The notes below the pieces were generated by a model that was not told where the DNA came from, did no database searches, and worked only from the letters and a program-made list of their open reading frames with translations. From Pseudobdellovibrionaceae bacterium (GTDB lineage Bacteria; Bdellovibrionota; Bdellovibrionia; Bdellovibrionales; UBA1609), in the NCBI GenBank assembly GCA_023954155.1, contig JAMLIO010000003.1:62001-126000 (forward strand): a stretch of DNA of 64,000 bases. The letters run 5' to 3'. The translations under genes and the position numbers were made by a program. How positions within the stretch are numbered: position 1 is the first letter of the stretch; each line of letters begins with the position of its first letter. Below are positions 33,818 through 52,438 of the stretch, piece by piece.

Positions 33818-34999
33818 ATGTCGCAAAGCAAACCAAATTTACTTTTTAGCCCAGGGCCCACGCTAGTTTCACCTCGAACGCTTCAGATTTTAAGCCAGCC
33901 CACTGGGCATCACCGCACCGCTGAGTTTCAGGCTCAATTTCGACAAGTTTTAGATTTATTAAAAAAACTTTATCAAACCCAAGAAGGCCATGTTTTCTGT
34001 CTGACCAGCACAGGAACGGGAGCGATGGAAGCCAGTGTCATCAATTTCTTAAACGCTTCAGAAAAAGTTTTGTATTACAACGCGGGTAAATTCGGAGAAA
34101 GATGGGGACAACTGGCACGCTGCTACGGTCTTGAGACCCATGAGCTGAAACAAGAGTGGGGACAAACTTTCCCTTTAGAATCCTTCGAGCAACTCTTAAA
34201 AACAGAAAAGTTCTCCGCCTTCTTCTTGCAAGCTTGTGAAACTTCTACGGCCACTTACCAGCCTCTTGCAGAAATTTCGGTTTTACTGAAAAAGTATCAA
34301 CCCGACTGTCTTTTGGTTGTGGATGGGATTACAGCTGTAGGTGCTTATGACCTACCTATGGACCAACTTGGTATTGATATTTTAGTTTCAGGCTCTCAAA
34401 AAGCTTTGGGACTCCCAACAGGATTAGCTTTTTTAGGGGCCTCCCCTAGAGCTTTGACTAAAATGCTTTCGGTTACACAACCACGATTTTATTTTGATCT
34501 TCGTGCAGAAAAAAAGGCCAACGATCAAGACACCACGAACTTCAGTACTCCCGTAGCCCAGATCCTTGCTTTGAAATTTAAACTGGAATTTCTTTTCACC
34601 CAAGGACTGCAAAAGTACTTTTTAAAAACTCAAGCTTTACAAGAAAGCACCCTTCATTTTTTAAAAGACTTTGGATGCAGCATTTATAGCCAGTCCCCGA
34701 GTCCTTCCTTGACCGCATTTGGTCTACCGCAGGGCTCACCTACTGAGGCCTTTCAAAAACATCTTAAGGCTGATGGACTTTATCTGGCTGGAGGTCAGGA
34801 TCATCTGAAAGGACACGTTTTACGGTGGGGGCACATGGGCGACATTTTGATCCAAGAACAAATCAAAGCCTATAAAATCTTTGCCACTCATATTGCACCT
34901 TTACTCTCCATGACCCCGTCTCAAAGCTTAGAGCTTGTAGATCAACATGCCTCCCGCTTGCAAACCCAAACTCTGATTGATGAGTGCTACCCGCAATGA
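33818..34999 (+). CDS. Class V aminotransferase (possible phosphoserine or alanine-glyoxylate type)
   Basis: 393-aa PLP enzyme of the alanine-glyoxylate/serine-pyruvate aminotransferase branch: 'NLLFSPGPTLVSPRTLQIL' and 'TGHHRTAEFQ' near the start, 'LTSTGTGAMEASV', 'LLVVDGITAVGAYDLPMDQLGIDILVSGSQKAL' with the Schiff-base Lys in GSQKAL, and 'HVLRWGHMGDI' near the end. Its stop overlaps the start of a 2-hydroxyacid dehydrogenase (ATGA). Together they could convert 3-phosphoglycerate to phosphoserine, replacing classical SerC and SerA; this is inference from pairing, since each family has several substrates. Confidence 0.82.
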   Translation: MSQSKPNLLFSPGPTLVSPRTLQILSQPTGHHRTAEFQAQFRQVLDLLKKLYQTQEGHVFCLTSTGTGAMEASVINFLNASEKVLYYNAGKFGERWGQLARCYGLETHELKQEWGQTFPLESFEQLLKTEKFSAFFLQACETSTATYQPLAEISVLLKKYQPDCLLVVDGITAVGAYDLPMDQLGIDILVSGSQKALGLPTGLAFLGASPRALTKMLSVTQPRFYFDLRAEKKANDQDTTNFSTPVAQILALKFKLEFLFTQGLQKYFLKTQALQESTLHFLKDFGCSIYSQSPSPSLTAFGLPQGSPTEAFQKHLKADGLYLAGGQDHLKGHVLRWGHMGDILIQEQIKAYKIFATHIAPLLSMTPSQSLELVDQHASRLQTQTLIDECYPQ

Positions 35000-35994
35000 A
35001 GGCGCAAGCTCCCTGTATCTTTGTCACCGAAGATTATCCGCAATGGGCCTTAACTCTATTGCGTACAGAATTGCCTAACTACAATGTGGTGCAAGGTTCT
35101 CTTGTAACACTGTTTGATAATCAAGAGTTATGCTCTTGTGTAGAGGCGCTACTGGTTCGCAGCACTAGCACAGTAGACCATAAACTTTTAAACTTCACCC
35201 CTCAATTGAAAGCTGTGGGGACAGCCACAAGTGGTTTTGATCACTTAGACCTTAAGGCTTTAAAAGAAAAAAACATTGTGGCTTTTCATACACCAGACGC
35301 CAACGCCGACTCTACTGCGGACCTGACTCTTTGGCATATTCTTTCCGTCTCTCGTTTTCTAAACACTTCGCAACTTAAAAAAGCACAGTGGCGCTCGAAC
35401 CTGCCTCGAGGAAAAAACCTTCACTCTTTAAGTTTGGGTGTGCTCGGTATGGGGCGTATTGGAAGACGTGTGGCCCAACGTGCACAGGCCTTTGGCATGT
35501 CTATTTTTTACCATGACCCTTATATTGAACACGAAGAACTGGGGTCTGCGACATGGAATCTTGCGGCAGCTGAACCTCTAGGACTTTTAGAGCTCTTCAC
35601 TCATTGTGATGTGATCACCTTGCATTTACCACTGACTGGAAAAACTCGTCATATTATCAACGAAAAGACTCTCGAGCATTTTGGAAATGATAAAATTCTT
35701 GTCAATTGCGCTCGCGGAGAACTGATTCAAACTTCTGCCCTATTAAAAGCCCTTGATACAGGAGTTCTTACCCACGCCGCCCTTGATACGTTTGAAGTCG
35801 AACCCCTTGAAGCCCTGTCTCCACTGCGAGAACACCCCCAAGTCCAATGGACCCCCCATATCGGTGCCTACACCGAACAGTCCTTTAACCGTTCTTGCCA
35901 AGAGGCGGTGGAGCTTCTCAGCAAATTTCTAAAATCAAACCAAATCCCACCCTCCACATTACCCCCAACCACCTTATGGGCTGAAGAGCTTTAA
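34996..35994 (+). CDS. D-isomer-specific 2-hydroxyacid dehydrogenase (SerA- or PdxB-like)
   Basis: 332 aa from the ATG that overlaps the preceding stop. 'LKAVGTATSGFDHLDL' starts the substrate domain. The Rossmann motif is GVLGMGRIGRRVAQRA. The catalytic triad is visible: Arg in 'VNCARGELIQ', Glu in 'ALDTFEVEPLEAL', His in 'PHIGAYTEQSF'. Phosphoglycerate dehydrogenase, erythronate-4-phosphate dehydrogenase and related reductases share these motifs. The ATSGFDHLD opening and the absence of an ACT domain allow PdxB, whereas the coupled aminotransferase favours a serine-pathway role. It is followed by palindrome A. Confidence 0.8.
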   Translation: MKAQAPCIFVTEDYPQWALTLLRTELPNYNVVQGSLVTLFDNQELCSCVEALLVRSTSTVDHKLLNFTPQLKAVGTATSGFDHLDLKALKEKNIVAFHTPDANADSTADLTLWHILSVSRFLNTSQLKKAQWRSNLPRGKNLHSLSLGVLGMGRIGRRVAQRAQAFGMSIFYHDPYIEHEELGSATWNLAAAEPLGLLELFTHCDVITLHLPLTGKTRHIINEKTLEHFGNDKILVNCARGELIQTSALLKALDTGVLTHAALDTFEVEPLEALSPLREHPQVQWTPHIGAYTEQSFNRSCQEAVELLSKFLKSNQIPPSTLPPTTLWAEEL

Positions 35995-36036: not shown

Positions 36037-36233
36037 CTTTCTTGGCGTCCGAGTCTGAATAGGATCGAAAATAGGAAGATTTTTTGGATAGAGTTGATCA
36101 AAATTCGAGTTCGGCTTGGCGCAGCTTTGCAACGGCAATGCTGTGCCAAACGTCACTGTCTGAGGATTTTGAATAACTCTATCCAAAAAATCTTCCTATT
36201 TTCGATCCTATTCAGACTCGGACGCCAAGAAAG
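36037..36233. repeat. Giant palindrome A: 59-bp perfect arms around a conserved 79-nt core
   Basis: Left arm 36037-36095 and right arm 36175-36233 are perfect reverse complements. The core, 36096-36174, read on the minus strand is nearly the same as the core of palindrome B (52313-52390): one block of about 31 nt with a single mismatch, a variable tip, then an identical 18-nt block ending TGCGCCAAGCCGAACTCG. The core itself folds (TTTGGCAC...GCGCCAAG). The arms share nothing with those of B. It lies between the dehydrogenase stop (43 nt away) and purA. No T-run follows, so it is not a simple terminator. An ORF predicted across it is an artefact of the repeat. Confidence 0.9.
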
Positions 36234-36337: not shown

Positions 36338-37633
36338 ATGCCAGGTATTATCGTTGTAGGCTCACAATGGGGCGACGAAGGAAAAGGTAAAGTTGTCGAT
36401 GTTTTTTCTGCCGAATCAGACTACGTGGTTCGCTATCAAGGTGGGGCTAACGCAGGTCACACGCTTGTGGTCGATGGCAAAAAGACAGTTTTGCATCTTG
36501 TGCCTTCAGGTGTTTTGCATAAAAATACAAAATGTTTAATCGCAGCAGGTGTTGTCCTTGATGTGGAACAGATGACCAAAGAGATCTCGGCTTTAAAAAA
36601 AGCAGGTTTGCTTGAGGATCACACCCAACTTGGAATTTCTGACGGAGCCACTGTGCTTTTAAGTTTTCATCGCCGCTTAGACATGGCCAGAGAGAAAGCT
36701 CTTAAAAATGAAAAGATTGGAACCACAGGTAAAGGCATTGGCCCTGCTTACGAAGACCGCGCTTCTCGCAGAGCCCTTTTATTTGGACACTTATTTTTAC
36801 CCACCGAAATGTTACGCGAAAAGATTGAGCGCTCACTAAAAGAGAAGAACTTTCTCTTAGAAAACTTCTACGGCGAAGAGCCCATTTCTGTGGAAGAAGC
36901 GCTGAAAGAGGCGCAAACTTTTGCCGAAGAACTTGCTTCCTATCGCTGCAAAGACACCTCTTGGGTGGTTTACAAAGCCCTTAAGGACGGCAAAAAGGTC
37001 TTATTTGAAGGAGCTCAAGGTACTCTTCTTGATCTGACTCATGGAACTTATCCCTTTGTCACAAGCTCTTCGACCCTTGCAGGTTCAGCCTGCTCAGGAG
37101 TGGGCATTGGTCCTACCTTTATTCAAAAGGTCATTGGGATCACCAAAGCTTACACTACACGTGTTGGCTCAGGTCCTTTTCCCACCGAACTGCATGACGA
37201 ATTAGGTGCTGAAATTCAAAGAAAAGGAGCCGAGTTTGGCGCCACCACAGGACGTCCTCGTCGTTGTGGATGGTTAGACCTTGTCGCCTTAAAGTACGCG
37301 ATTCGCACGAATGGTTTAACTTCATTAGCGTTGATGAAAATGGATGTGCTCAGTGGTCTTGATGAGATCAAGGTGTGCACAGGTTATAAAACGCCCTCAG
37401 GCATCGTAGAAGAGTTTCCTATGTCTTCTTGGGGAATCACTGAAGTGGAACCTGTTTACGAAACCCTGAAGGGCTGGAGTGACCACATCGACCAGATTGA
37501 AAACTTTGAGGACTTGCCTCAAACTGCAAAAGATTATGTTAAGTTTATTGCCGAAAAAACAGACACCCCAGTGGGTGTAGTTTCTGTGGGACCAAGCCGT
37601 CAGCAGACTTTATGGCTTAGTCCTCTGTTTTAG
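36338..37633 (+). CDS. purA: Adenylosuccinate synthetase
   Basis: 431 aa. Joins IMP and aspartate using GTP on the way to AMP. The P-loop GSQWGDEGKGK is near the N-terminus, followed by 'RYQGGANAGHT', 'GTTGKGIGPAYEDR', 'FEGAQGTLLDLTHGTYPFVTSS', 'TRVGSGPFPTEL' and 'GATTGRPRRCGWLDL'. The start is well placed behind AAGGGG. It stands alone between palindrome A and the tRNA pair. Confidence 0.96.
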   Translation: MPGIIVVGSQWGDEGKGKVVDVFSAESDYVVRYQGGANAGHTLVVDGKKTVLHLVPSGVLHKNTKCLIAAGVVLDVEQMTKEISALKKAGLLEDHTQLGISDGATVLLSFHRRLDMAREKALKNEKIGTTGKGIGPAYEDRASRRALLFGHLFLPTEMLREKIERSLKEKNFLLENFYGEEPISVEEALKEAQTFAEELASYRCKDTSWVVYKALKDGKKVLFEGAQGTLLDLTHGTYPFVTSSSTLAGSACSGVGIGPTFIQKVIGITKAYTTRVGSGPFPTELHDELGAEIQRKGAEFGATTGRPRRCGWLDLVALKYAIRTNGLTSLALMKMDVLSGLDEIKVCTGYKTPSGIVEEFPMSSWGITEVEPVYETLKGWSDHIDQIENFEDLPQTAKDYVKFIAEKTDTPVGVVSVGPSRQQTLWLSPLF

Positions 37634-37734: not shown

Positions 37735-37810
37735 GATCCGTTAGCTCAGTTGGTAGAGCATCTCCCTTTTAAGGAGAGGGTCCATGGTTCGAGTCCATGA
37801 CGGATCACCA
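37735..37810 (+). tRNA. tRNA-Lys (TTT)
   Basis: 76 nt with encoded CCA. Acceptor stem GATCCGT/ACGGATC, D-arm TAGCTCAGTTGGTAGAGCA, anticodon loop CTTTTAA giving TTT, and T-arm GGTTCGAGTCC. A TTGACT box lies 35 nt upstream (37695-37700), with an AT-rich stretch where a -10 would fall. Confidence 0.97.
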
Positions 37811-37868
37811 GTTCTACTTGCTGGGCTGTCGAAATAAAAGTTGATTTCGAGAGTATCAAGTTGTCCAA

Positions 37869-37944
37869 GTTCCCTTCGTCTAGAGGCCTAGGACACGTCC
37901 CTTTCACGGATGAGACACGGGTTCGACTCCCGTAGGGAACGCCA
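37869..37944 (+). tRNA. tRNA-Glu (TTC)
   Basis: 76 nt with encoded CCA. Acceptor GTTCCCT/AGGGAAC, D-region CGTCTAGAGGCCTAGGAC, anticodon loop CTTTCAC giving TTC, and T-arm GGGTTCGACTCCC. It follows tRNA-Lys by 58 nt, probably as one transcript. Its 3' end abuts a start-less ORF, as is common where elements have integrated into tRNA genes. Confidence 0.96.
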
Positions 37945-51969: not shown

Positions 51970-52281
51970 ATGCTTGTTGTCTATTGTGTTTTTCCTGATT
52001 TAGAAACCGCACAACACATTTCCAAGGAGGCTGTCAGCAATAAGCTTGCAGCCTGTGCCAATATACTTCCTCAAATTCAAAGTTTTTATATTTGGAATGA
52101 ACAAGTGGAAAGCACTTACGAAACTGTAGTTCTGTTTAAGACTTCACTAGCTAAGTCAGAAGCTTTGCAAAAATGGATATTAGAACATCATCCCTATGAG
52201 ATTCCTTGTCTTATGACATTTAGGCCGCAGGATATCCATGGGGCTTATTTGAACTGGCTCCAAGAAGCCCTCTTTGGGTGA
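51970..52281 (+). CDS. cutA: Divalent-cation tolerance protein CutA1
   Basis: 103 aa. 'VYCVFPDLETAQHISKEAVSNKLAACANILPQIQSFYIWNEQVESTYETVVLFKT' is the typical trimeric ferredoxin-like fold, and 'HPYEIPCLMTF' the conserved C-terminal stretch. Its link to copper tolerance in E. coli is debated. It probably shares a transcript with the cation transporter before it. Its last ~17 nt form the outer part of the left arm of palindrome B, so the end of the gene is duplicated, inverted, about 160 nt downstream. Confidence 0.92.
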   Translation: MLVVYCVFPDLETAQHISKEAVSNKLAACANILPQIQSFYIWNEQVESTYETVVLFKTSLAKSEALQKWILEHHPYEIPCLMTFRPQDIHGAYLNWLQEALFG

Positions 52282-52438
52282 TCTTAAGTTCTTCTTAGAT
52301 TTTATATGATATACTCAAAATGCTCAGACAGTGACGTTTGGCACACTTTTGCGTCGCAAAAGTGCGCCAAGCCGAACTCGCATTTCGACCATATCATATA
52401 AAATCTAAGAAGAACTTAAGATCACCCAAAGAGGGCTT
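52265..52438. repeat. Giant palindrome B: 48-bp perfect arms around a conserved 78-nt core
   Basis: Left arm 52265-52312 and right arm 52391-52438 are perfect reverse complements. The left arm begins inside cutA and includes its stop codon. The core 52313-52390 matches the core of palindrome A in inverse orientation: TCAAAAT-n-CTCAGACAGTG... up to GGCACA, then a self-complementary tip CTTTTGCG/CGCAAAAG, then TGCGCCAAGCCGAACTCG. The arms differ entirely from those of A. No poly-T follows. The rest of the 345-nt gap before pyrE (52439-52626) is AT-rich with no clear gene. Confidence 0.9.

What the first reader, a model, noticed from the sequence alone, without database searches (positions are those of the whole stretch)
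36037..36233. A new class of giant palindrome: conserved core with locus-specific inverted-repeat arms (copy A)
Seen directly: 59-bp perfect arms around a 79-nt core. A second palindrome in the window (52265-52438) has almost the same core in the opposite orientation but completely different 48-bp perfect arms. In MITEs the terminal repeats belong to the element; in REP/BIMEs the whole palindrome is conserved; in terminators the stem is short and followed by T. Here the core is the conserved part and the long arms are not. The likely reading is a mobile or self-copying core that makes an inverted duplication of its target flank, or a structure maintained by hairpin-primed copying. Arms of this length are normally unstable, so perfect identity implies recent formation or active repair.
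Basis: partly seen in the sequence, partly recalled or inferred. Interest (0 to 1): 0.9.

Follow-up and report, generated by a model that had tools for sequence, protein, structure and literature searches.

The report
Giant hairpins with self-rewriting arms
A family of bacterial DNA repeats keeps only a small central motif, while the long mirror-image arms around it are rewritten, apparently by copying one arm from the other, so that they stay perfectly matched although their sequence differs from place to place and from species to species.

Summary
Copy A has 59-bp perfect arms around a 79-nt core; copy B has 48-bp perfect arms around nearly the same core, reversed. The genome holds about 40 copies. 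Of 33 with measurable arms, 25 are perfect; 1400 arm pairs hold 14 mismatches. Core copies differ by 5.6% outside the apical stem; arms beyond about 10 nt are nearly unrelated. The family occurs in many genera of one order and was not found elsewhere in the phylum. What is conserved is an internal-loop motif, CTCRGACA / GAACTCG; apical stem and arms vary but stay paired. In one genome the two arms of a copy differ by 1.3% while copies differ by 22%. At orthologous sites in related species, flanks and core are conserved while arms can be completely different, each still palindromic. So arms are rewritten in place and matched by copying, best explained by hairpin-primed template switching. How the core reaches new sites is unknown; no IS200/RAYT transposase match and no target-site duplication were found.

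The parts
36037..36095 (+). Copy A, arm nearer the 2-hydroxyacid dehydrogenase gene (59 bp, perfect complement of 36175-36233)
36096..36174 (-). Copy A core, 79 nt, read on the minus strand (apical stem plus conserved internal loop)
36157..36164 (-). Copy A, conserved half motif CTCAGACA
   Evidence: sequence; order-wide motif
36106..36112 (-). Copy A, conserved half motif GAACTCG
   Evidence: sequence; order-wide motif
36175..36233 (+). Copy A, arm nearer purA (59 bp)
52265..52312 (+). Copy B, left arm (48 bp); contains the last codons and stop of cutA
52313..52390 (+). Copy B core, 78 nt
52323..52330 (+). Copy B, conserved half motif CTCAGACA
   Evidence: sequence
52374..52380 (+). Copy B, conserved half motif GAACTCG
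   Evidence: sequence
52391..52438 (+). Copy B, right arm (48 bp)
34984..35994 (+). Gene ending 42 bp before copy A: 2-hydroxyacid dehydrogenase family (best NCBIfam match PGDH, below its cut-off)
36338..37633 (+). purA, adenylosuccinate synthase, about 105 bp after copy A
51970..52281 (+). cutA (divalent-cation tolerance protein family); its 3' end lies inside the left arm of copy B

Best explanation
This is an order-wide family of dispersed intergenic giant hairpins. What is inherited is a small asymmetric core: two half motifs, CTCRGACA and GAACTCG, that face each other as an internal loop, with a self-complementary apical stem between them. The long outer arms are inherited as pairing, not as sequence. 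SHOWN: the core is conserved, and arms are unrelated between copies yet perfectly complementary within each copy. At orthologous sites arms change on both sides together, sometimes completely, while flanks and core stay. INFERRED: during replication the strand folds at the core, the 3' arm is primed and re-copied from the 5' arm (intrastrand template switching), and this both restores matches and spreads any change in one arm to the other. INFERRED: the core spreads to new sites, mostly gene and tRNA 3' ends, by a route not yet identified. GUESSED: the hairpin serves as a two-way transcript-end or insulator structure, the internal loop being the recognised part.
For: About 41 core matches in the own genome; 33 with arms of 24 bp or more, 25 perfect, 14 mismatches in 1400 pairs. 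Core divergence outside the apical stem 5.6%; arm nt 11-30 61% (shuffled 67%), nt 31-45 74%. Within-copy against between-copy arm identity: G000 0.988 vs 0.551, G029 0.991 vs 0.845, G013 0.861 vs 0.744, each 0/2000 permutations; sequence further out shows no such match. Arm mismatches are not biased to G-U: 6 G-U type, 9 A-C type, 8 other, which favours DNA-level copying. Orthologous locus II (G053/G065/G068): left flank 80-93%, core 81-93%, arms at shuffled level, yet paired 23/24, 29/29, 18/18. Locus I: two mirrored double changes between G053 and G068. Locus IV: arms 0.64-0.68 identical, both palindromic. Own-genome arms are rich in T over A (31 loci to 2) and G over C (22 to 5) on the 5' side, the asymmetry that PMC8794818 predicts for intrastrand template switching.
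Against: The T/G excess of the 5' arm is clear only in the own genome (G over C also in G092/G093) and is absent or reversed in several others. The source of wholly new arm sequence is unexplained: 15 arms of the own genome match nothing else in it beyond three marginal hits, and phage records give nothing convincing. Template switching is inferred from patterns, not seen. Left arms abut gene 3' ends more closely than right arms (convergent pairs 32 vs 9), a polarity that the model explains only with extra assumptions. The CutA reading frame says the left arm is native, whereas locus II says left arms are not conserved.
Confidence: 0.62

Rival explanations
1. Functional RNA hairpins at transcript 3' ends: selection on the RNA keeps the arms paired, and arm sequence drifts by ordinary compensatory mutation.
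For: Core pairs covary (16 pairs with changes on both sides, 0/500 shuffles). Sites are mostly gene 3' ends: 42 convergent, 40 co-directional, 7 divergent. Arms hold terminator-like stem plus T tract in 13/32 against 11.6% of shuffles. Some relatives have a bidirectional terminator as apical stem (L367, L369).
Against: Arm mismatches show no G-U preference on the sense strand. Arms change in blocks at locus II while staying paired, and 30-80 bp of perfect pairing exceeds what RNA stability would need.
Confidence: 0.18
2. A transposon-like element (MITE-like) moved by an unknown transposase, each insertion bringing or creating its own arms; arm differences at orthologous sites are repeated excisions and re-insertions.
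For: Multi-copy, recent core copies; presence/absence between relatives; in G029 the element ends are conserved outside the arms.
Against: No target-site duplication: mean 1.36 against 1.40 shuffled. No Y1 transposase (PF01797) in the own genome. At loci II and IV outer flanks and core are retained while only the arms between them change.
Confidence: 0.12
3. Product of a reverse transcriptase or retron: core RNA copied into DNA and inserted with self-primed second-strand synthesis.
For: Genomes with the element more often hold an RVT_1 gene (23/45 vs 23/96, Fisher p = 0.002); one copy lies about 2 kb from the only RT of the own genome.
Against: That RT is a type VI retron RT beside its HTH partner, a known defence system. 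22 of 45 element-bearing genomes lack any RT, and no element lies beside the RTs checked in nine other genomes apart from one poor match at E = 0.49.
Confidence: 0.05
4. Assembly artefact: false palindromes made by the assembler.
For: Several contigs of the own genome end inside copies; two chimeric-looking junctions.
Against: The same core with long arms recurs in many independent assemblies, including single-contig genomes; arms differ by a few mutations between sister species at the same sites.
Confidence: 0.01

Closest known systems
REP / BIME / REPIN elements with RAYT transposase
   Same: Dispersed extragenic palindromes, many copies, favour gene 3' ends
   Different: In REPs the short palindrome itself is conserved and a Y1 transposase moves them; here the arms vary, are 30-80 bp and perfect, and the own genome has no Y1 transposase match
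MITEs
   Same: Short non-coding dispersed repeats with inverted repeats
   Different: MITE terminal repeats belong to the element and target duplications flank it; here arms differ per copy and there is no target duplication
Quasipalindrome correction by template switching, including its proposed role in making and keeping RNA hairpins (PMC8794818)
   Same: Perfect stems, mirrored changes, predicted G-C/U-A asymmetry that is met in the own genome
   Different: Known as a mutation mechanism at scattered sites; not known to me as the upkeep of a dispersed element family with a conserved core
Perfect coding palindromes of Nematomorpha mitochondria (PMC6649704)
   Same: Nearly all-or-none perfect long arms, rapid turnover, arm conversion by template switching proposed
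   Different: Within genes, mitochondrial, and the abstract and the passages retrieved mention no shared core
Intrinsic transcription terminators
   Same: 3' ends of genes, hairpin, T-rich tracts
   Different: Far longer stem, conserved internal loop, multi-copy core

Membership tests
REP/REPIN-RAYT | Conserved palindrome sequence shared by all copies | tested here: not met
   Arms diverge 61-74% beyond nt 10 while the core diverges 5.6%
REP/REPIN-RAYT | Y1 (IS200-type) transposase in the genome | tested here: not met
   PF01797: no match at E <= 1e-6 in G000, which holds about 41 core matches
REP/REPIN-RAYT | Extragenic, near gene 3' ends | tested here: met
   42 convergent, 40 co-directional, 7 divergent sites
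MITE | Terminal inverted repeats conserved among copies | tested here: not met
   Not met in G000; conserved outer segments do exist in G029 and, by reading, G092
MITE | Target-site duplication | tested here: not met
   No excess over shuffled flanks in G000
MITE | Related autonomous transposon | not tested
   No candidate transposase was identified
Intrinsic terminator | GC stem followed by T tract | tested here: inconclusive
   13/32 arms have such a feature against 11.6% of shuffles
Intrinsic terminator | Ends transcription | not testable with these tools
   No expression data
Retron-derived | Element lies at or derives from a retron ncRNA locus | tested here: not met
   In loci around RTs of ten genomes the model finds only the copy about 2 kb away in G000 plus one poor match at E = 0.49
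Template-switch (quasipalindrome) product | Perfect arms and two-sided mirrored changes | tested here: met
Template-switch (quasipalindrome) product | G-C and U-A asymmetry from copying the 5' arm | tested here: inconclusive
   Met in G000 (31:2 and 22:5), not in all genomes
Known RNA family | Match to Rfam at gathering score | tested here: not met
   Only two tRNAs in the window; no family at gathering score on the elements

The most novel reading that the evidence does not exclude
A mobile or domesticated element whose heritable information is a folding pattern: a conserved internal loop that makes the replication machinery rewrite both arms of the hairpin together, possibly with a dedicated protein that binds the loop, so that arm sequence is continually and perhaps usefully diversified while perfect pairing is kept.
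Probability: 0.3. Interest if true: 0.96.

Novelty: categorically new. Interest (0 to 1): 0.87.

Why it matters
Repeats are normally recognised because sequence is copied. Here the conserved thing is a small loop motif and the fact of pairing, while tens of base pairs of arm are replaced at fixed sites on both sides at once. That gives natural, many-copy replicates for two open questions: how long perfect palindromes are made and kept in bacterial chromosomes, and how paired stems evolve without mismatched intermediates. Closely related species already hold the same sites before and after arm replacement. The literature search was limited to open-access papers, so an earlier description elsewhere cannot be excluded.

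Tried and rejected
REPIN/RAYT: no Y1 transposase match in the own genome. Retron/RT origin: the RT is a type VI retron, not linked elsewhere. MITE-type target duplication: none. Terminator on one side only marking the native arm: a first print seemed to show a left/right energy difference, but it compared an energy with a z-score; redone properly there is no difference. Foreign source of arms: phage records give only marginal hits; phage and plasmid searches with the core give nothing useful. One phylum-level hit outside the order, G273, is a plain hairpin without the core motif. Orientation bias of the core relative to transcription: weak in co-directional pairs (22 vs 18), clear only as closeness of the left arm to gene ends. 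Flank search in G137/G028 with G013 loci was dropped because the flanks are themselves repetitive. Alignment A2 mixes both strands and was not used.

Full report
Observation. The two palindromes exist as described. Copy A: 59-bp perfect arms around a 79-nt core read on the minus strand. Copy B: 48-bp perfect arms around a 78-nt core on the plus strand. They are the only long close inverted repeats in 64 kb, and fold about 20 standard deviations better than shuffles.

Copies in the genome. The window lies in a 2.44-Mb genome of 15 contigs. The 18-nt block has 38 places at up to three mismatches, against 1 for the reversed control; the core gives 41 matches. Printed in register, nearly every copy is a giant hairpin with its own arms: 33 copies with arms of at least 24 bp, median 40, longest 78, 25 perfect, 14 mismatches in 1400 pairs. 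Core copies in register differ by 10% overall and 5.6% outside the apical stem, whereas arms differ by 41% at nt 1-10, 61% at nt 11-30 and 74% at nt 31-45 from the core; within-copy shuffles give 67% for nt 11-30. So the cores are recent copies, and the arms beyond about 10 nt are local. A few copies share 8-16 nt of inner arm (ATATAT or ATAGAGTT; read). A degenerate copy (C6:50.8 kb) has decayed arms and core.

Not an artefact. Several contigs end inside copies. For one locus the two halves are the starts of contigs C2 and C8, arms matching 34/34; another pair is C10 and C2:58.9 kb. Independent genomes, one of them a single contig (G042), carry the family.

Range. A covariance model of the core (16 pairs changed on both sides, none of 500 shuffles as high) found matches in 45 of 141 genomes of the order, up to about 30 scored per genome, and none outside the order in the phylum-level search except a plain hairpin without the core motif. 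Weak hits showed a wider family: the shared part is two half motifs, CTCRGACA and GAACTCG. The gapped pattern for them hits 71 of 141 genomes; some single hits are chance, as the control column shows. The arm test separates them: of 30 loci taken one per genome, 19 have arms of 16 bp or more and 11 have 7 bp or less. So the conserved thing is an internal loop; the apical stem and the arms both vary but stay paired.

Arms match within copies. In G029 (some 40 copies) the two 30-nt arms of a copy differ by 1.3% while copies differ by 22%. Permutation tests give 0/2000 in G029, G013 and the own genome, while sequence further out shows no such match. Mismatches are not biased to G-U (6 G-U type, 9 A-C type, 8 other), so pairing looks restored at the DNA level rather than tolerated at the RNA level.

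Arms change in place. Congeners were first searched for the flanks of elements: 20 homologous places at roughly 70-80% identity had no element, so presence differs between species. Orthologous sites that do carry the element in several species were then found. Locus II (G053, G065, G068): left flank 93/84/80% identical, core 87/81/93%, arms no more alike than shuffled sequence, yet paired 23/24, 29/29 and 18/18. Locus I in the same three species: arms nearly identical, with two mirrored double changes and a few one-sided ones; G075 and G076 at the same site have different arms. Locus IV (G075/G076): arms 64-68% identical, still palindromic. G042 and G102 share an element after the same tRNA-Phe gene with diverged arms. 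Change is therefore partly gradual with mirroring, partly by replacement.

Mechanism. The pattern is that of hairpin-primed template switching: the 3' arm is recopied from the 5' arm. PMC8794818 states that intrastrand switching favours G-C and U-A pairs. In the own genome the 5' arm has T over A in 31 loci against 2 and G over C in 22 against 5, while sequence after ordinary stop codons shows 13:9 and 12:10. The signature is absent or reversed in several other genomes, so it supports but does not prove the mechanism. New arm sequence has no source in the own genome (three marginal extra hits) or in phage records.

Place and function. Elements sit at gene 3' ends: 42 convergent, 40 co-directional, 7 divergent. 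The left arm lies closer to a gene end than the right (32 vs 9 convergent pairs, p = 4e-4), and in four cases it runs 3-5 nt into a tRNA 3' end. In copy B it contains the last codons of cutA, through the aligned end of the CutA family, which says that arm is native there. Arms hold terminator-like features more than shuffles (13/32 vs 11.6%), and some relatives have a bidirectional terminator as apical stem (L367, L369). A two-way transcript-end role is likely but untested. Spread of the core is inferred; no transposase was found, Y1 transposase has no match in the own genome, and there is no target duplication.

Comparison. REP/REPIN and MITE fail tested defining features; retron origin is not supported. 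Nearest in behaviour are template-switch hairpins and the coding palindromes of Nematomorpha mitochondria. No description of such a family turned up in the open-access searches.

Noticed in passing
L308:2981-4268 (G000:C2, about 213.5-214.8 kb): Type VI retron: RT (RT_VI, E 2e-65) preceded by its HTH partner (HTH_VI); the only RVT_1 match in the genome.
   Followed up: yes
L121 around 760-840 (G000:C5): A junction where the core has its right half on both sides and the flanking arms do not match: looks like a rearrangement between two copies, or a misassembly.
   Followed up: partly
G000:C2 start / C8 start; C10 start / C2:58.9 kb: Matching arms (34/34) at different contigs suggest how the contigs join in the real chromosome.
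   Followed up: partly
L273-L302 (G029): Elements are flanked on both sides by a conserved sequence TATACCRATCCGGTTTGA, which also seems to occur alone in neighbouring flanks: a possible separate REP-like repeat.
   Followed up: partly
L367, L369: Relatives whose apical stem inside the conserved half motifs is a classic bidirectional terminator (A tract, GC stem, T tract).
   Followed up: no
L185, L186, L199, and G000:C2:58.5/58.9 kb: Pairs of elements in opposite orientation a few hundred bases apart recur in several genomes.
   Followed up: no
window 37735-37941: Two tRNA genes downstream of purA.
   Followed up: no
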